From the NCBI GenBank assembly GCA_002170875.2, contig NHHT02000013.1:30428-36770 (forward strand): a stretch of DNA of 6,343 bases, read 5' to 3'. Source of the DNA: Pelagibacteraceae bacterium TMED170. Its GTDB lineage: Bacteria; Pseudomonadota; Alphaproteobacteria; Pelagibacterales; Pelagibacteraceae. The notes below the pieces were generated by a model. It saw nothing but the letters and a program-made list of their open reading frames with translations, was not told the DNA's origin and did not search any database. Shown piece by piece: positions 1 to 6,343 of this stretch. Position 1 is the stretch's first letter. Each line of letters starts with the position of its first letter. The position numbers and the translations under genes are program-made.

Positions 1-366
1 ATGAAAATTCAATAATTTTTTTAAATTTACATTGGATATACCGTCTCCATAAGTCATCATAAAAGTCTCATTTTTTTTAAAATATTTTTTTAGCCTTTTA
101 AGCCTTCCTCCTGTCATAGTATTTTTTCCTGTTTCAACTAAGTTGATTTTCCATTTACTAAAATTATTTTTCTTAAAAAATTTTTTAATTTCATTTCCTT
201 TGTAACCAAGTGCAATATAAAACTCTTTGAAACCGTAACGAGAATAAAGCTCCATTATATGTATTAAAATAGGTTTACCTGATATCTTAATAAGTGGTTT
301 TGGAATAGTTTTAGTATACTCTCCTATCCTAGTTCCAAAACCTCCAGCTAAAATAACTACTTTCAT
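1..366 (-). CDS. rfbF: RfbF-like glucose-1-phosphate cytidylyltransferase, N-terminal part (3' end beyond the window)
   Basis: The frame opens with ATG at 364-366 and stays open for 122 codons to the window edge, so the C-terminal half is missing. The translation begins MKVVILAGGFGTRIGE, the nucleotide-binding loop of sugar-phosphate nucleotidyltransferases. It continues with IPKP (residues 21-24), the RfbF-typical MTGGRLKR (84-91) and TYGDGISNVN (105-114), whose Asp is the expected metal ligand. RfbF makes CDP-glucose from CTP and glucose-1-phosphate for deoxysugar synthesis. Compared with enteric RfbF as I recall it, this copy lacks a stretch of roughly 20-30 residues between the IKKFF region (60-64) and WKINLVETG (72-80), so it is a compact variant and the exact sugar is less certain. 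The start lies 7 bp after the LicD-family stop, so it is the last visible gene of the PEP-mutase operon. Only a weak purine-rich RBS is present. Confidence 0.8.
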   Translation of the reverse strand, partial: MKVVILAGGFGTRIGEYTKTIPKPLIKISGKPILIHIMELYSRYGFKEFYIALGYKGNEIKKFFKKNNFSKWKINLVETGKNTMTGGRLKRLKKYFKKNETFMMTYGDGISNVNLKKLLNFH

Positions 367-373
367 TTTTTAA

Positions 374-1078
374 TTAATCTTCTTTCATAATAGTAGAGGG
401 ACTATCTTTGATCCAGTTATATTTTTTTTGTGCAATAGTCCAGTTTTCACCGTAAATATATTTTAAATATTCTTTAAATTTTTTTGGAATTGTTACTGTC
501 ATATCTTGAAATGTGATTTCGGTTAACTCTTCGACATGTTCTGCTGGATGAGAATAACCCGCGGATTGATAAAATAGATTTTTACTTATTAAAAATAATT
601 TTAATTTTAATAAGAATGGTTGAAATATAATAAATAATTTTATTAATCTTTTAAATTTACCATCATATATATTTGCTACTGATATAGCCTCTATTATTTT
701 ACAGAATACATTTTTAGGAATTTTCCAATCTATAAAAGCTATTTTTTTATTAAATTTAGATATGATTTCATAAAAATTAAAATCGACTTCTCTGCCTCCT
801 TTTTTCACAAAAGTTAATTGATCGTTTTCATTCATAAACTTTTTTTTTATATTAAAGTTATTTGAGAGCATAATTTTGATTATTTTTTCTTTAATAAAAT
901 TATCTTGCCATATTGCTATATCAATATCATGATCCCATGGTATTAGATCTTTGTCACGAATAATTCCAAGTAATGTTCCTTGGCACAACCAGTACTTAAT
1001 ATTATTTTTTTTTAAAATATTAATCGTTTCGTGGAAATTTTTATCTATCTTTTCTTTGCTACTATTCTCAGTATACAT
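374..1078 (-). CDS. LicD-family (fukutin-like) phosphotransferase
   Basis: A 234-residue protein with the LicD/fukutin nucleotidyltransferase-fold signature. GTLLG (residues 34-38) is followed by R41 and PWDHDID (47-53), in which D49, D51 and D53 form the metal-binding acidic cluster. REVDF (96-100) supplies a further Asp, D99, expected to complete the site. The C-terminal YGENW (209-213) matches the family's usual ending. LicD proteins transfer phosphocholine from CDP-choline onto glycans. Next to a PEP-mutase/cytidylyltransferase gene, transfer of a CMP-activated phosphonate to a sugar is a reasonable inference, not shown by the sequence. The first ATG is used because the catalytic motif begins by residue 34 and the next Met is residue 70. 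The start lies inside the end of the methyltransferase gene (34-bp overlap), which suggests translational coupling. No signal peptide or clear membrane span is seen, although residues 146-166 are hydrophobic and Lys-rich. Confidence 0.85.
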   Translation of the reverse strand: MYTENSSKEKIDKNFHETINILKKNNIKYWLCQGTLLGIIRDKDLIPWDHDIDIAIWQDNFIKEKIIKIMLSNNFNIKKKFMNENDQLTFVKKGGREVDFNFYEIISKFNKKIAFIDWKIPKNVFCKIIEAISVANIYDGKFKRLIKLFIIFQPFLLKLKLFLISKNLFYQSAGYSHPAEHVEELTEITFQDMTVTIPKKFKEYLKYIYGENWTIAQKKYNWIKDSPSTIMKED

Positions 1079-1671
1079 GGATTTTCTTTCTTAAATTTAG
1101 CAAAATTATACGATTGCTTAAAATATATTATCTTGAAATTTTTTCTCAATTTATTTTTTAAAACTTGTGGGTCGATAAATCTTCTGTAATGAGAAGAAAT
1201 AAACTCATGTTTTCCAACTTTTTTGCCTACTCCATAATATTCGTCTTTTAAAGTTCTACACTCTATGAATAAAAAATTTATATTACTTTGTTTTTTAATA
1301 GAGGATATTAAACGGTTTTCATCAAGGTAATTAATCGCATGTAAAGTAAATCTTGAATAAATTGAAAATTTTTCATTAATTTTACTTTTAAAAAAGATTC
1401 TACAAAAATTATCTTGCAAAAACTTATTCTTATATCGAATAAAATTTTTTTTATTTCTTTTTATTGCCTCTTTAGATTTATCTATTCCAAAACAATGGAT
1501 TTTATTCTTATTAAAATAAATAGAATCTCTTCCATTGCCGCATCCAATATCGTAAAGAGTGCCTTTATAATTTTTTAAAATTTTTCTACAAAAAATAGCA
1601 AATTTACTGGGTTCAAGGGTTAATTTTTTCTTTTTATAAAAGTTATCCCAATATTTTAGTTTTTTTTTCAT
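1045..1671 (-). CDS. Class I SAM-dependent methyltransferase
   Basis: A 208-residue protein with a Rossmann-type SAM-binding site. Motif I is YDIGCGNGRDS (residues 40-50), and an acidic residue at the end of the second strand, D64 in FGIDKS, would hold the ribose hydroxyls. A later SRFTLHAI (106-113) corresponds to the post-motif region. A conserved-looking HEFISSHYRRF (155-165) follows; I associate it with surface-polysaccharide methyltransferases, and it may shape the acceptor site. The acceptor cannot be read from sequence. A phosphonate oxygen or a sugar hydroxyl/amine are the options suggested by the neighbours. The gene starts 11 bp after the PEP-mutase fusion stops, and an AAGGA only 2 nt before the ATG is one of the few Shine-Dalgarno-like sequences here. 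The coding strand has nine consecutive A directly after the ATG codon. Its 3' end overlaps the LicD-family gene by 34 bp. Confidence 0.85.
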   Translation of the reverse strand: MKKKLKYWDNFYKKKKLTLEPSKFAIFCRKILKNYKGTLYDIGCGNGRDSIYFNKNKIHCFGIDKSKEAIKRNKKNFIRYKNKFLQDNFCRIFFKSKINEKFSIYSRFTLHAINYLDENRLISSIKKQSNINFLFIECRTLKDEYYGVGKKVGKHEFISSHYRRFIDPQVLKNKLRKNFKIIYFKQSYNFAKFKKENPCILRIVAKKR

Positions 1672-1682
1672 TATCCTTAAAT

Positions 1683-2996
1683 TTAATTTACACCAGGTAT
1701 TAAATTTAGAATTTCATTTATACTCAACAATCTCTTATCTGCCTCTTTTGATCTATTATTTTTCAAAATATCAAGTGCTACATTTCTCATTGCAGGATAA
1801 GCCGCTCTTAACATATGATTTGCATAAATAACTATATTAAATCCATTTTTTAAAAGCTCTTTTTCAGTAACATGATTGTAACTAGACGGAACACTTATTA
1901 AGGGTATATTTTTATAGCTTTTTCGAAATAATTTTGAAAACTGAAAAATTTCTTTGGTGTCTTTTGATTTACTATGTATCATAATTCCGTCTGCTCCAGC
2001 TTCAACATATGAGTGCGCTCTATCGATAGCATCTTTAAGCCCCTTACCTAAAATAAAACTTTCAATTCTAGCTATAATCATAAATTCATGACTGCTTTGA
2101 GCTTTTTTTCCTATGGATATTTTTTTTGCAAAACTTTTTTTATCTTCTTGTTTTTGATCTTTAGTATTTTTAAAAAGCGAATTCTTTTTTAAACCAGTTT
2201 TATCTTCTATTATAATTGCTGAAATACCTAATCTTTCTGCAGATTTTATCTTCATTTCAAAATGTTCGATTTTCCCTCCGGTATCTCCGTCGAAAATCAA
2301 AGGCTTAGTGGTTACATCAAAAATTTGATTTACACCCTGAAGTCTTTGAGAAATATCAACTGATTCATTGTCTGGCTTTCCCATCATAGTTGAGTCAGTC
2401 AAAGAGCTTGACCAAAATCCATCAAACCCTATTTTTTTTCCATTCTTTTGCATATAAATATTTTCCCCTATCAAAGCAGATATTGGATTGTGAGCCTCGA
2501 GAAATCTTGAAATATTTTTAGCATCAAGTAATTTTCTTAGTGTTGCTCTTCTAATGTCTGGTGTAATTGTAATTGAATTTTGATGATCTATTAAAGCTGC
2601 AGACGAAATACCTTTTGTATAAGGTAATTCTATGAGTTTTCCGCCATAGCTTTTCAAGGCTTTTATTGAATTTTTTCTTATAATACTCATATGACCTTTT
2701 TTCCAGTCATCTCCGTGTACCATAAAATCTGGTTTTATTTTTTTGATGTTGTGCGAATAATCCCATTGCTTTTGTGCAACTACTTTTTTAACTCCTTTAA
2801 AATTTATTAAAATCTTTTTTCTTTGTTCAAAGCTTAACAGGGGTAAACGCTTGTACTCAGCAATCGCATTATCCGTAATTAATCCAATTATTATATCTCC
2901 GTAAGTTCTTGCCGACTCGATAAGTTTTATATGGCCATGATGTATAGTTCCTGCGGTTAGAGCAATATATACGATTTTATTTTTTTTTGTTTTCAT
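1683..2996 (-). CDS. pepM: Bifunctional cytidylyltransferase / phosphoenolpyruvate mutase (phosphonate biosynthesis)
   Basis: A 437-residue two-domain fusion. The N-terminal domain (about 1-140) is a HIGH-type cytidylyltransferase: TAGTIHHGH (14-22) contains the HxGH motif, VHGDDWKKG (93-101) matches the family, and GISSAAL (129-135) resembles the usual GISST ending. The C-terminal domain (about 150-437) is a PEP mutase of the isocitrate lyase superfamily. GFDGFWSSSL (190-199) is the substrate loop and FDGDTGG (235-241) the Mg site. EDKTGLKKNS (264-273) is an intact EDKx5NS signature that separates true mutases from lyases. R310 and H341 fit known active-site positions. PEP mutase converts PEP to phosphonopyruvate, the entry to almost all C-P compounds; the fused domain probably attaches CMP to a phosphonate made later. 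Length is normal for such fusions. It heads a co-directional set with the methyltransferase, LicD-family and RfbF-like genes. A perfect palindrome ends 4 bp before the ATG, and there is no clear RBS. Confidence 0.93.
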   Translation of the reverse strand: MKTKKNKIVYIALTAGTIHHGHIKLIESARTYGDIIIGLITDNAIAEYKRLPLLSFEQRKKILINFKGVKKVVAQKQWDYSHNIKKIKPDFMVHGDDWKKGHMSIIRKNSIKALKSYGGKLIELPYTKGISSAALIDHQNSITITPDIRRATLRKLLDAKNISRFLEAHNPISALIGENIYMQKNGKKIGFDGFWSSSLTDSTMMGKPDNESVDISQRLQGVNQIFDVTTKPLIFDGDTGGKIEHFEMKIKSAERLGISAIIIEDKTGLKKNSLFKNTKDQKQEDKKSFAKKISIGKKAQSSHEFMIIARIESFILGKGLKDAIDRAHSYVEAGADGIMIHSKSKDTKEIFQFSKLFRKSYKNIPLISVPSSYNHVTEKELLKNGFNIVIYANHMLRAAYPAMRNVALDILKNNRSKEADKRLLSINEILNLIPGVN

Positions 2997-3000
2997 AAAT

Positions 3001-3017
3001 TGTTCAATTTTTGAACA
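3001..3017. promoter_or_regulatory. Candidate operator: perfect inverted repeat upstream of the PEP-mutase gene
   Basis: TGTTCAA (3001-3007), spacer TTT, TTGAACA (3011-3017): perfect 7-bp arms. The identical arms and identical spacer length recur in front of pseB at 5900-5916. The site lies 4 bp upstream of the PEP-mutase ATG and abuts the candidate -10 box, so a bound protein would cover the transcription start and act most simply as a repressor. The binding protein is unknown and none is encoded in the window. A small mRNA hairpin over the initiation region is an alternative reading. Confidence 0.65.
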
Positions 3018-3044
3018 TAATATTGAGAATTATCCATTAGTAAA
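3017..3044 (-). promoter_or_regulatory. Candidate sigma70-type promoter for the PEP-mutase operon
   Basis: Read on the minus strand, TTTACT (3039-3044) is followed after 16 bp by TATTAT (3017-3022), which match the -35 and -10 consensus at 4/6 and 5/6. The predicted start falls near 3010, at the centre of the inverted repeat, leaving a leader of about 14 nt. A/T-rich DNA yields such hexamers by chance. The support is the 72-bp gap in an otherwise tight gene series and the same arrangement at pseB. Confidence 0.45.
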
Positions 3045-3068
3045 GCTTTAATTTCAAAGCATAAATAT

Positions 3069-4865
3069 TTATATTTCATCTTCTAAAAAATTTGTCCATT
3101 CATTTATGCCATTATTACTTATTTTACAGAAATTATCTTTCAACTCATTTATAGTATTTAAAACATTTGGAGAATTCCACCAACTTAGAGGATTTGACCA
3201 TACTTCGTTAATATGTTCTGCTGCTTCTTTTGCATCCTTAAAACAAATTTTATTTTTAAATAATTTTATTTGAAGTTGTTTAGTTTCTTCAGTTTGATCA
3301 AGAAATGGATTATTTTTTGGATCATTTATCAGTACTGTTGGACCAGTTAATATTCCCTCTAAAAAGGCAGTTTGTGGATATGAACATACAATTATTTTAG
3401 ATTTTGAAATATATTTATAAAGCGCAGGACTTTCATTAATATATTTATCTTTGATTTCTTTTTTTAAATCTCTTTGTTCTGAAATCAATGACTCTTTTGT
3501 TGGAAGATACTTTAATTTTTGAAAAATATCTTTTTTTAAAATTGATTTAAATAAAATTATATTTTCTATATTATTTGATGTGCTAAAATTCACTCCTGTC
3601 CCAGCCTTATGGGGATACAAATGATTGGGTTCTTCAACATAACTTAAATAAATAGGATTTTTTCTATTAAAGTTGTAATTTATAAACTTAGAGGCCGGTA
3701 ATTGCACATCGTTATTATTTCTGGGTTTTGTCCAAGTGAACTTCTTATCAACAAATTTATTCTCATATTGTAAGCACGGAGAAAATTTTTGATGGTTGGC
3801 ACCTCCATGATTGCTTACATAAAATTTAGCCTGGTTTTCTATAACATTAGATGCGACCCAATATTTAAATTTTTCATTATGATAGTGATTGTAAGAGGAG
3901 ACAATTAATTTTGGCCTAATTTTAATATTTTTTACACTGTTATTAAGCATATTATAGCCCTCTAGAAAACACTTAGGTATATCAAATTTTATAACTGTGT
4001 CTAAAAATTTAGGAAACATATCCAAATCATCGTAGCTTGCAGCTTCATCGAATTGTAAGGATTCTCTGCTCTTAAAATCATAATTGATATTTTCAAAATG
4101 ATAATTTTCAAAATGATAATTAAATAGCGATCTAAAATGCTGTGGAAATTGACCAAGTTTTAAATTAATTTTATAAAAATTTTTTTTAGTAAAAATTTTA
4201 TCCTCTATAAAAATAAGATTTTTTTTTGCCATTATTAAATTGAAATTATCTAGAAGAGTATAAAAATTAAATTTAATTTTTTGAGAAATAGATAGGTTTA
4301 TTTTTTTTTCTTCTTTAAATTTAAAGTCTTTTTTTAAAAAGTTAATATTTTTACCATTGTTCTTTAAAAATTTTAAAATTTTTTTAAATACTGTATAATT
4401 AAATTCGTTGTTGTCTCTTATTAAATTTAGATAATCAATTGTATAGGAAGGGGATGACTCTTTGTCGTCATTTAATAAACAAAAATCCAAATTTTTATTA
4501 AAATTCAAAGCTTCATTAACTACTTTCCATCTATATAACTGAGAAGGAATATAATAATAAAGCCATGACAATGTTAATATATTCCAATATCTTTCAGGAA
4601 AGTTCTTTTTATGATAAACATTTAAAAAAATACTTAACTTTTTTGCATATATATCTAAAAGTTTTTGCATATAAATATAATCTTTTTCCAGTAAATCGAT
4701 ATTCTTCCAGGGGTTAGATATTAAATATAAATCTTTATTCTTTAAAAAATTTTTTGTTTCTTCTCTTGATGAAAAACACCACTTGCCAGCATAAATTTTT
4801 TTTTTATTTATTTCAAAATTAGCGTCTAAGATTGTGGCTATAAATTGTGAACTGTTACTGTACAT
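3069..4865 (-). CDS. LIC12162-family putative transferase of a surface-glycan locus
   Basis: A 598-residue protein, probably cytoplasmic, with no signal peptide or obvious membrane span. I recognise it by family resemblance to the LIC12162 family (named from Leptospira). Visible matches are GKWC (27-30), RYWNILTLSWL (92-102), HGGANH (353-358), VCSYPQTAFLE (493-503) and SWWNSP (561-566). The C-terminal half (about 320-580) looks like a GT-B-type nucleotide-sugar-binding fold; the middle (about 130-310) is Lys/Asn/Phe-rich and poorly conserved. Members sit in polysaccharide clusters, often beside nonulosonic acid genes, and are called transferases without a settled substrate. Lying 41 bp downstream of pseB, transfer of pseudaminic acid or a related sugar is a reasonable inference only. 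The gene carries a 15-bp in-frame tandem duplication (4091-4120) and a 10-A tract at codons 20-24. A 12-bp palindrome TTTAATATTAAA ends 1 bp before the ATG; no RBS is clear. Confidence 0.7.
   Translation of the reverse strand: MYSNSSQFIATILDANFEINKKKIYAGKWCFSSREETKNFLKNKDLYLISNPWKNIDLLEKDYIYMQKLLDIYAKKLSIFLNVYHKKNFPERYWNILTLSWLYYYIPSQLYRWKVVNEALNFNKNLDFCLLNDDKESSPSYTIDYLNLIRDNNEFNYTVFKKILKFLKNNGKNINFLKKDFKFKEEKKINLSISQKIKFNFYTLLDNFNLIMAKKNLIFIEDKIFTKKNFYKINLKLGQFPQHFRSLFNYHFENYHFENINYDFKSRESLQFDEAASYDDLDMFPKFLDTVIKFDIPKCFLEGYNMLNNSVKNIKIRPKLIVSSYNHYHNEKFKYWVASNVIENQAKFYVSNHGGANHQKFSPCLQYENKFVDKKFTWTKPRNNNDVQLPASKFINYNFNRKNPIYLSYVEEPNHLYPHKAGTGVNFSTSNNIENIILFKSILKKDIFQKLKYLPTKESLISEQRDLKKEIKDKYINESPALYKYISKSKIIVCSYPQTAFLEGILTGPTVLINDPKNNPFLDQTEETKQLQIKLFKNKICFKDAKEAAEHINEVWSNPLSWWNSPNVLNTINELKDNFCKISNNGINEWTNFLEDEI
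4091..4120. repeat. Perfect 15-bp tandem duplication within the LIC12162-family gene
   Basis: Two exact adjacent copies of TTTCAAAATGATAAT (4091-4105 and 4106-4120), with identity extending to about 4089-4121. In the protein this gives a duplicated five-residue block in NYHFENYHFENI (residues 249-260). The unit is a multiple of three, so the frame is kept. It lies in the weakly conserved middle of the protein and probably arose by replication slippage. Confidence 0.9.
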
Positions 4866-4906: not shown

Positions 4907-5890
4907 TTATACTTTTGTCATTTTAATTAATTGTTTTACACTTAAAAAATCAGGATTATCTTTAGAGTTATAGCTAAAATTTACTTTGACTTTTTTGCAA
5001 CTTTTAAATCTTTTTTTTAAATTTGAAACTCTTGATGAGTTACTGTCTGCTAAGATAATATAATATGATCCTACATCATAAGTGTTATAACTATCCGCAG
5101 ATGTAACCATCTCTTCATGAATTTTTTCACCTTTTCTAATTCCTACAATTTTATATTTATTTTTGAGTTTCATGGCTTTGATTAAATCAAGAATATGATA
5201 TGAGGGAATTTTTGGAACAACTAAATCTCCTCCAGATAAATTTTTAATTGACCAATCTACAACTTTTACACCTTCTTCTAAAGTAATGCTAAATCTAGTC
5301 ATTTCATCACTAGTTAAACCGAACACTCCTTTCGTTTTAAATTTTGAAAGAATAGGAAGAACTGAACCTCTGGATCCTAAAACATTCCCATATCTTACAA
5401 TTGAAAATGAACAGTCCTTACCGGAATAATTGTTTGCTGCAATAAAAAGTTTATCACTACAAAGCTTTGTCGCGCCATAAAGATTTATTGGCGCACAGGC
5501 TTTATCTGTTGAAAGAGCTATAACTTTTTTAACTTTATTATTTAAACACGCTTCAATCAAATTTTGAGCTCCTACAACATTTGTTTTGATAAACTCAATA
5601 GGGTTATATTCGGCAACTGGGACCTGCTTTAATGCTGCTGCATGAATAACAATATCAATCTTATTTAATGCTCTAGAAATTCTATCAAGATCTCGCACAT
5701 CACCTATAAAATATCTAATAGATGGATATTCATCTTTACTAAAAGTACGAGCCATTTCTGACTGTTTAAGTTCATCTCGACTAAATATAACGAGTCTTTT
5801 TATTTTTTTATATTTTTTTAATATAAATTTAGTAAAAGCCTTGCCAAAACTACCTGTTCCACCAGTTATTAAAATTGATTTTCCATTCAT
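4907..5890 (-). CDS. pseB: UDP-N-acetylglucosamine 4,6-dehydratase (inverting), pseudaminic acid pathway
   Basis: A 327-residue NAD(P)-dependent extended short-chain dehydrogenase/epimerase-type enzyme, the usual length for PseB. TGGTGSFG (9-16) is the nucleotide-binding glycine loop, FSRDELKQSEM (36-46) is characteristic of the PseB/FlaA1 group, and GDVRD (63-67) follows. The active site is in STDKACAPINLYGATK (127-142). D129, K130 and Y138 have the same spacing as D132, K133 and Y141 of Helicobacter PseB, as I recall it, with the YxxxK lysine at K142. RKGEKIHEEM (252-261) is also typical. It dehydrates and epimerises UDP-GlcNAc to the 4-keto-6-deoxy-AltNAc precursor of pseudaminic acid. pseI lies divergently across a 112-bp gap, which supports this over other dehydratases. 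The ATG is the first residue before the Rossmann fold and no Shine-Dalgarno is visible. A perfect palindrome shared with the PEP-mutase gene lies 8-9 bp upstream. Confidence 0.93.
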   Translation of the reverse strand: MNGKSILITGGTGSFGKAFTKFILKKYKKIKRLVIFSRDELKQSEMARTFSKDEYPSIRYFIGDVRDLDRISRALNKIDIVIHAAALKQVPVAEYNPIEFIKTNVVGAQNLIEACLNNKVKKVIALSTDKACAPINLYGATKLCSDKLFIAANNYSGKDCSFSIVRYGNVLGSRGSVLPILSKFKTKGVFGLTSDEMTRFSITLEEGVKVVDWSIKNLSGGDLVVPKIPSYHILDLIKAMKLKNKYKIVGIRKGEKIHEEMVTSADSYNTYDVGSYYIILADSNSSRVSNLKKRFKSCKKVKVNFSYNSKDNPDFLSVKQLIKMTKV

Positions 5891-5898
5891 AAATGTTT

Positions 5899-5917
5899 AT
5901 GTTCAATATTTGAACAT
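5899..5917. promoter_or_regulatory. Candidate operator: perfect inverted repeat upstream of pseB
   Basis: ATGTTCAATATTTGAACAT is a palindrome with 8-bp arms around a 3-bp centre. Its 7-bp core arms (5900-5906 and 5910-5916) are identical to those before the PEP-mutase gene. It abuts the proposed pseB -10 box and covers the predicted start. A second perfect palindrome, ATGTATACAT (5916-5925), overlaps its edge and contains the -10 hexamer. Repressor binding is the simplest interpretation; the protein is unknown. Confidence 0.65.
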
Positions 5918-5946
5918 GTATACATGAGTTTGATATGATTTGTAAA
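5917..5946 (-). promoter_or_regulatory. Candidate sigma70-type promoter for pseB
   Basis: On the minus strand, TTTACA (5941-5946) is followed after 18 bp by TATACA (5917-5922), matching consensus at 5/6 and 4/6. The predicted start near 5910 lies within the inverted repeat, leaving a leader of about 20 nt. The -35 region TTTACAAAT resembles TTTACTAAT at the PEP-mutase promoter, and both promoters hold the palindrome at nearly the same offset. Confidence 0.45.
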
Positions 5947-5959
5947 GAATTTTGTTATT

Positions 5960-6002: not shown

Positions 6003-6343
6003 ATGAATTTCAGAAATAAAAAGTTATTTTTTAAACATATTAAAAGGCCTTTAATAATTGCAGAAATCTCAGGGAACCATAATGGTAAAAAAAGCTCACT
6101 ATTAAATCATATAAAATGTGCTGTAAAAGCTGGAGCTGACATGATTAAGATACAAACATATGAACCAAAAGACATCACTTTAAAAAGTAAAAATAAAAGT
6201 TTTAAAATTAATAGTGGGATTTGGAAAGGAAAGTATTTGTGGGATCTTTATAAGAAGGCACACACTCCCTACCAGTGGCACAAGGATGCATTTAAATTAG
6301 CAAAAAAATTAAATACTACTCTATTTAGTACACCATTTAGTCA
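6003..6343 (+). CDS. pseI: Pseudaminic acid synthase, N-terminal part (cut by window end)
   Basis: ATG at 6003 opens a frame of 113 codons that runs off the window; an in-frame TAG at 5982-5984 and no earlier ATG fix this start. Sialic acid synthase (NeuB) family motifs are clear: AEISGNHNG (residues 20-28), KIQTY (49-53), LYKKAHTPYQWH (82-93) and STPFS (109-113). The ISGNHNG form and the LYxxAHTPxxWH block favour PseI over NeuB. PseI condenses 6-deoxy-AltdiNAc with PEP to give pseudaminic acid. Full family members are about 350 residues, so roughly two thirds is missing, including most catalytic residues and the C-terminal antifreeze-like domain. It diverges from pseB, the first enzyme of the same pathway. 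The other pathway genes (pseC, pseF, pseG, pseH) are not in the window and may follow on this strand. No Shine-Dalgarno is evident. Confidence 0.9.
   Translation, partial: MNFRNKKLFFKHIKRPLIIAEISGNHNGKKSSLLNHIKCAVKAGADMIKIQTYEPKDITLKSKNKSFKINSGIWKGKYLWDLYKKAHTPYQWHKDAFKLAKKLNTTLFSTPFS

What the first reader, a model, noticed from the sequence alone, without database searches (positions are those of the whole stretch)
3001..3017. Same perfect palindrome in front of the phosphonate operon and in front of pseB
TGTTCAA-N3-TTGAACA occurs at 3001-3017 and 5900-5916 with identical arms and identical spacer length, each just upstream of a start codon and touching a plausible -10 box. These are the only perfect copies I found by eye. 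The G/C-bearing arms are unlikely to recur twice by chance in DNA this A/T-rich. It suggests one regulator controls both pseudaminic acid synthesis and phosphonate decoration, a link I do not know to be described. It differs from the alphaproteobacterial LexA box, a GTTC direct repeat, because the half-sites here are inverted.
Basis: partly seen in the sequence, partly recalled or inferred. Interest (0 to 1): 0.75.

Follow-up and report, generated by a model that had tools for sequence, protein, structure and literature searches.

The report
Shared control switch for surface-sugar genes
The repeated 17-letter palindrome is most likely the docking site of a small, uncharacterised regulator found in the same gene island of SAR11 bacteria, where it seems to switch a changing set of surface-sugar and phosphonate genes together.

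Summary
TGTTCAA-N3-TTGAACA occurs twice, perfectly; 0 of 300 shuffles hold a comparable repeated palindrome. The window is SAR11-like. In 247 Pelagibacteraceae genomes the exact site occurs 125 times in 80 genomes, the reversed control pattern in none. 76 of those 80 have a match to TIGR04176, the "MarR family EPS-associated regulator", against 49 of the other 167 (p=8e-25). A site lies upstream of the regulator's own gene in 34 of 35 loci read, in 25 twice, fused into its promoter. Outside SAR11 the core GTTCA-N5-TGAAC precedes 14 of 17 unfused TIGR04176 genes. So the palindrome is very probably this regulator's operator. The site overlaps the -10 box, which favours repression (inferred). Binding, sign, signal and the regulator's presence in this window's own genome are untested. 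My paper searches found no described operator for TIGR04176. Verdict: real; new member of a known kind.

The parts
3001..3017 (.). Operator-like palindrome TGTTCAA-N3-TTGAACA upstream of the PEP-mutase (phosphonate) operon
   Evidence: homologous promoter layout
3017..3045 (-). Candidate promoter: CTTTAC/TTTACT (3045-3039), 16-base spacer, TATTAT (3022-3017) whose last T is the palindrome's first T
   Evidence: consensus match only, start site not mapped
5900..5916 (.). Second identical-arm palindrome, in the pseB/pseI divergent gap
5917..5947 (-). Candidate pseB promoter: CTTTAC/TTTACA (5947-5941), 18-base spacer, TATACA (5922-5917)
   Evidence: weak -10, not listed by the scan
5910..5939 (+). 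Candidate pseI promoter TTGAAC-18-TATGAT whose -35 lies inside the palindrome
   Evidence: 9 of 12 matches, TG before -10; inference only
4907..5890 (-). pseB, UDP-GlcNAc 4,6-dehydratase (TIGR03589, 465 bits, cut-off 407.75)
3069..4865 (-). LIC12162-family transferase (TIGR04331, 252.2 bits, cut-off 225)
1683..2996 (-). Cytidylyltransferase-like/PEP-mutase fusion (TIGR02320, 396.3 bits, cut-off 319.55)
1045..1671 (-). SAM-dependent methyltransferase-like gene
374..1078 (-). LicD-family gene
1..366 (-). Sugar-1-phosphate nucleotidyltransferase, cut by the window edge
6003..6341 (+). pseI-like start (TIGR03586 best, partial because cut by the window edge)

Best explanation
[quoted passage not shown] Shown by sequence: the site is built into the promoter of the regulator's own gene, co-occurs with that gene across genomes, and in SAR11 also heads other transcription units of the surface-polysaccharide island, here pseB and the PEP-mutase phosphonate operon. 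Inferred: because the palindrome begins at the last base of the -10 box and would cover about -7 to +10, bound protein blocks RNA polymerase, giving negative autoregulation and joint repression of the island's promoters until a signal (perhaps an envelope or sugar-precursor metabolite) releases it.
For: Exact site in 80 of 247 Pelagibacteraceae genomes (125 sites), reversed pattern in 0 of 247; 76 of the 80 have a TIGR04176 match against 49 of 167 others, p=8e-25. Site with at most 2 mismatches upstream of the regulator in 34 of 35 loci, reversed pattern 0 of 35, shuffle mean 0.08; two sites in 25 of 35. GTTCA-N5-TGAAC upstream of 14 of 17 unfused genes outside SAR11, shuffle mean 0.004. 41 of 41 exact and 7 of 7 one-mismatch sites away from the regulator's own start are intergenic. 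28 of 28 same-contig sites within 35 kb of the regulator, 10.4 expected if even. -10 hexamer ends exactly at the palindrome's first T more often than at any other offset. Substitutions leave the GTTCA core and are uncompensated in 44 of 45 changed pairs. Recognition-helix segment FSLGKLNYC invariant in 36 homologues; MarR fold.
Against: No binding or expression data. The window holds no TIGR04176 gene and no genome is held for it. 4 of the 80 site-bearing genomes have no detected regulator gene, and 49 of 125 with a match have no exact site. 3 of 17 outside-SAR11 genes and 2 of 6 named plasmid loci lack the motif; the fused and plasmid forms use a 4-base spacer instead of 5. In 14 outside-SAR11 genomes total copies of YGTTCA-N5-TGAACR (17) are not far above the reversed control (10), so only position argues there. 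At one mismatch the reversed control does occur (4 sites in 10 genomes). The sign of regulation rests on position alone.
Confidence: 0.86

Rival explanations
1. Same TIGR04176 operator, but the bound protein activates: the site in the -35/-10 spacer of the regulator promoter or the site at the -10 reshapes the promoter, so that the island is switched on by the bound form.
For: Many regulator promoters carry one site in the -35/-10 spacer; the -35 hexamers (TTTACT/TTTACA) are not the TTGACA consensus.
Against: Most sites outside the regulator promoter are single and overlap the -10 and start region, a position that usually blocks polymerase (general knowledge).
Confidence: 0.2
2. The palindrome is the site of another regulator that merely travels with the same island.
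For: Both lie in one hypervariable type of island; co-inheritance alone gives some association. 4 of 80 site-bearing genomes lack a detected TIGR04176 gene.
Against: The site is at the regulator's own promoter in 34 of 35 SAR11 loci and its core recurs before 14 of 17 unfused TIGR04176 genes in other lineages; autoregulation is the simplest reading.
Confidence: 0.07
3. It is an RNA hairpin: a terminator or leader element.
For: The 7-base arms can pair in RNA (-5.5 and -6.2 kcal/mol for 41 nt, z -1.77 and -1.11).
Against: Not a terminator-like site in the scan, no Rfam match, 44 of 45 changed pairs uncompensated, and sites often end so close to the ATG that the hairpin would straddle the start of transcription.
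Confidence: 0.02
4. A variant of the LexA box or another stress operator.
For: GTTC-N7-GAAC shares its half-site and gap with the recalled alphaproteobacterial GTTC-N7-GTTC.
Against: Inverted, not direct; none of the 30 Pfam-scanned first genes (of 49) is an SOS gene; sites cluster in one island.
Confidence: 0.01

Closest known systems
[quoted passage not shown]
   Same: The gene next to the palindrome in SAR11 relatives passes the family cut-off (129.2 and 127.0 bits against 88); family members on named Roseobacter-group plasmids stand beside polysaccharide genes
   Different: I found no published operator or regulon for the family; in SAR11 it appears to serve many promoters, whereas in 10 of 14 other genomes the strict motif has a single copy, at its own gene
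MarR-family repressors with solved structures (e.g. 3bpv, HcaR 4rgx, FabT 6jbx)
   Same: Winged-helix fold, best structural matches; palindromic operators near their own promoters are typical of the family (recalled)
   Different: About 105 residues, shorter than the usual 130-150; long C-terminal helix and no known ligand; target pathway is surface polysaccharide
Alphaproteobacterial LexA box GTTC-N7-GTTC (recalled)
   Same: GTTC half-site and a 7-base gap
   Different: Inverted rather than direct repeat; no SOS genes among the 30 scanned first genes

Membership tests
TIGR04176 operator/regulon | Site stands at the regulator's own promoter | tested here: met
   34 of 35 SAR11 loci; 14 of 17 unfused loci elsewhere
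TIGR04176 operator/regulon | Site co-occurs with the regulator gene across genomes | tested here: met
   76 of 80 against 49 of 167, p=8e-25
TIGR04176 operator/regulon | Regulator gene present in the window's own genome | not testable with these tools
   no genome held; not inside the 6,343 bases
TIGR04176 operator/regulon | Regulator protein binds the site | not testable with these tools
   needs gel shift or footprint
TIGR04176 operator/regulon | Repression rather than activation | tested here: inconclusive
   position relative to -10 only
LexA box (alphaproteobacterial) | GTTC-N7-GTTC direct repeat | tested here: not met
   half-sites inverted
LexA box (alphaproteobacterial) | SOS genes downstream | tested here: not met
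   none among 30 of 49 first genes scanned
Intrinsic terminator | G+C-rich stem followed by a T run | tested here: not met
   neither palindrome is listed by the scan
Structured RNA element | Compensatory changes in the stem | tested here: not met
   1 of 45 changed pairs compensated; no Rfam match in the window

The most novel reading that the evidence does not exclude
The promoter-operator module (CTTTAC, -10, palindrome) works as a plug: surface-sugar cassettes that recombine into the SAR11 polysaccharide island arrive with it, or acquire it, and so fall under one local regulator, letting a cell change or hide its whole surface, phosphonate decoration and perhaps phage receptors included, with one switch. 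The regulator would have grown from a self-controlling ancestor with a single genome-wide site into an island-wide controller.
Probability: 0.4. Interest if true: 0.78.

Novelty: new member of a known kind. Interest (0 to 1): 0.62.

Why it matters
SAR11 is described as having few transcriptional regulators (PMC13198564, passages). A regulon tied to its surface-polysaccharide island, with the regulator family matched in 125 of 247 Pelagibacteraceae genomes (120 over the cut-off), would make surface variation in the ocean's commonest bacteria a regulated as well as a genetic matter. It also offers a candidate controller of SAR11 phosphonate synthesis, a trait that PMC8931226 (passages) finds in 18% of SAR11 cells and estimates could account for 75% of the sunlit ocean's phosphonate budget, while noting that production is not yet confirmed in SAR11. 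A short exact operator and a 105-residue protein make the idea directly testable and propose a binding site for a family that, in the papers I could search, is known only by name.

Tried and rejected
LexA box: inverted half-sites, no SOS targets among the 30 scanned genes. Terminator or leader RNA: not in the terminator scan, no Rfam family, uncompensated changes. Chance: rejected by shuffles and by the reversed-pattern control. A regulon specific to pseudaminic acid plus phosphonate: rejected, because the 49 first genes near sites fall into 34 similarity clusters. Phage carriage: no match in 50,697 phage records and none confirmed in one viral-contig scan with a single query protein. A paper search on the palindrome's letters held 495 loose matches; I saw the 20 listed titles and abstract starts, none describing this operator. 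(sulfurylase/HTH fusions; MarR and capsule repressors) were seen as listings only.

Limits of my counts. The 35 regulator loci are the 30 best-scoring matches plus five (a sixth, L087, dropped as a duplicate genome), not a random draw; the one miss reads N upstream, and in L091 the only site has 2 mismatches and lies 112 bases away. The 17 unfused outside-SAR11 loci exclude one (L166) at a contig edge; that they lie outside SAR11 is my reading of their 40-70% G+C, as kinship is not told. The 14 genomes were chosen because their regulator loci already had the motif, so only the scarcity of further copies is new there. The PEP-mutase check used 30 of 31 matches (one with a short upstream at a contig edge); the pseB check 30 of 64, two of them, both without regulator, having no readable upstream (one at a contig edge, mis-anchored by my script; one reading N). 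The clustering count used 28 sites on the 13 contigs whose lengths I had. Pfam was run on 30 of 49 first genes. The site list was cut, so only listed sites were placed. Five of the 125 TIGR04176 matches are below the family cut-off, and the family also gives sub-cut-off matches in 7 of 14 control genomes.

Full report
What is in the window. The stretch is 26% G+C and its PseB is 71-72% identical to that of three Pelagibacteraceae genomes, so it is SAR11-like. On the - strand run pseB (TIGR03589), a LIC12162-family transferase, a cytidylyltransferase/PEP-mutase fusion (TIGR02320), a methyltransferase, a LicD-family gene and a cut nucleotidyltransferase; a pseI-like gene starts on the + strand. 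The palindrome TGTTCAA-N3-TTGAACA is perfect at 3001-3017 and 5900-5916. None of 300 dinucleotide shuffles held a repeated 7-arm palindrome with two or more G/C per arm.

What the nearest relatives show. Of the ten SAR11-like loci I picked from the 67 of the PseB scan, four hold exact palindromes (L001, L002, L003, L005). [quoted passage not shown] in L005 the same family (127.0 bits) starts 13 bases after a copy. In L001-L003 that gene heads a same-strand run: regulator, two genes that look to me like an aminotransferase and an ABC transporter (not scanned), pseB, then a LIC12162-like gene; in L002 and L003 the run goes on to a phosphonopyruvate decarboxylase and a PhnW-like gene (scanned in L003 only), then another palindrome 2 bases before the PEP-mutase fusion. 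The L001 genome has the same palindrome-PEP-mutase pair on another contig.

Co-occurrence. In the ten genomes behind those loci, six have the regulator and the same six have exact sites; two of the other four have a single 1-mismatch site and two have none; the reversed pattern at one mismatch occurs in three of the ten genomes, four sites. In a draw of 247 Pelagibacteraceae genomes, 125 have a TIGR04176 match (120 over the cut-off) and 80 have 125 exact palindromes in all, while the same pattern read backwards occurs in none. 76 of the 80 have the regulator, against 49 of the remaining 167 (Fisher p=8e-25; related genomes are not independent). PEP-mutase fusions (23 of 29 genomes) and PseB (46 of 64) are also commoner where the regulator is present (p=0.0013 and 8e-5).

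The regulator's own promoter. In 35 SAR11 regulator loci a site with at most 2 mismatches lies upstream in 34 (22 exact); the other reads N there. The reversed pattern is found in 0 of 35, and shuffles average 0.08 loci. 25 of 35 carry two sites. The common layout is CTTTAC, first palindrome, TATA-like -10, second palindrome, ATG: the first site fills the -35/-10 spacer, the second starts at the -10's last base.

Beyond SAR11. In 398 genomes of the phylum 26 pass the family cut-off. Of 17 unfused genes from G+C-richer genomes, 14 have GTTCA-N5-TGAAC within 250 bases upstream, the only copy in each fetched locus; shuffle mean 0.004. In those 14 genomes YGTTCA-N5-TGAACR occurs 17 times in all (reversed control 10); 13 copies are at the regulator gene and in 10 genomes that is the only copy; G369 is missed because its site begins with A. 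Four of six named plasmid loci that I opened, of 22 plasmid records with a match (Sulfitobacter indolifex, Limimaricola, Roseivivax, Loktanella), have a 4-base-spacer form, GTTCA-N4-TGAAC, 85-97 bases before the annotated gene; Marivivens and Aliarcobacter do not. The fused proteins below have the 4-base form too.

The wider SAR11 targets. I fetched 38 stretches around listed sites away from the regulator's start. All 41 exact and 7 one-mismatch sites in them lie outside ORFs of 80 or more codons; 39 of the 41 exact sites lie within about 103 bases of an ORF start. Over 80 distinct exact sites from all loci with a full upstream the median distance to the ATG is 10 bases. On 13 contigs shared with the regulator, 28 of 28 non-adjacent sites lie within 35 kb of it, 25 within 20 kb; 10.4 would be expected within 35 kb if spread evenly. 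Forty-nine genes lie within 110 bases of these sites, in 34 similarity clusters. Thirty were scanned: sugar-nucleotide epimerases/dehydratases, ABC transporter, AMP-binding, HMGL-like, carbamoyltransferase, sulfotransferases, radical SAM, DegT aminotransferase, asparagine-synthase-like, HisF-like, 2-hydroxyacid dehydrogenase, PhyH-like, aldo/keto reductase, glycosyltransferase and others; seven had no Pfam match. That these are surface-polysaccharide genes is my reading of the families.

Exact sites sit directly before the PEP-mutase fusion in G003, G001, G208 and G149, with a 1-mismatch site in G023 shared with a divergent regulator gene; and before pseB in G132 and G199. All are in genomes with the regulator: 5 of 24 and 2 of 18 loci, against 0 of 6 and 0 of 12 (10 readable) without it. 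Conservation at any one target is patchy; what is conserved is the tie between site, regulator and island.

Mechanism. Good -10 matches (5 of 6 or better) end exactly at the palindrome's first T in 10 of 32 regulator and 13 of 42 other sites, no other offset exceeding 3 and 4; CTTTAC or CTTGAC begins at -26 to -31 in 22 of 32 and at -27 to -31 in 13 of 42. The window copies fit, with CTTTAC at -28 and -31, though pseB's -10 is weak. The palindrome would span about -7 to +10, a repressor position (inferred). Variants change at positions 1 and 7 in 43 of 45 cases and lose complementarity in 44 of 45, as expected for protein half-sites. The protein model (mean pLDDT 82.6, other models down to 52.0) is a winged helix with a long C-terminal helix; FSLGKLNYC, at its third helix, is invariant in 36 SAR11-like homologues; MarR-family chains lead the fold matches. 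Dimerisation, ligand and sign of control are inferred or unknown.

Prior art. Searches on the family's name and accession listed two papers and one; the one seen in passage (PMC10599003) only reports a member as up-regulated in salt stress. MarR with pseudaminic acid and palindromes gave none; SAR11 hypervariable-region terms gave two papers seen as a listing. PMC8931226 contains none of the words regulat-, MarR, promoter or palindrom-. These searches cover open PubMed Central papers only.

Noticed in passing
L167-L177 (unnamed G+C-rich genomes): TIGR04176-like winged helix at the N terminus of proteins with open frames of 690-705 residues; the five scanned (L168, L170-L173) continue as PUA_2, ATP sulfurylase and APS kinase, so a regulator domain is fused to the sulfate-activating enzyme. 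All 11 have GTTCA-N4-TGAAC upstream. It may hint at sulfate activation as a signal.
   Followed up: partly
L084-L119, 150 bases before the regulator gene: Two-palindrome promoter with about 22-24 bases between the sites in most loci, the upstream copy often TGTTCAA-N3-ATGAACG; suggests cooperative binding on one DNA face.
   Followed up: partly
L292, L295, L296 (Sulfitobacter, Loktanella, Marivivens plasmids): An annotated NusG/RfaH-type antiterminator gene lies near the TIGR04176 gene, in L295 and L296 directly divergent from it, at the edge of polysaccharide genes.
   Followed up: no
window 5900-5939: The second palindrome also overlaps the -35 of a candidate pseI promoter on the + strand, so one site could serve both divergent pse genes.
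   Followed up: no
G111, G141, G236, G242: Exact sites in genomes with no detected TIGR04176 gene; G141's site (L138) shows the full two-site promoter, so an incomplete assembly is likely but was not checked.
   Followed up: no
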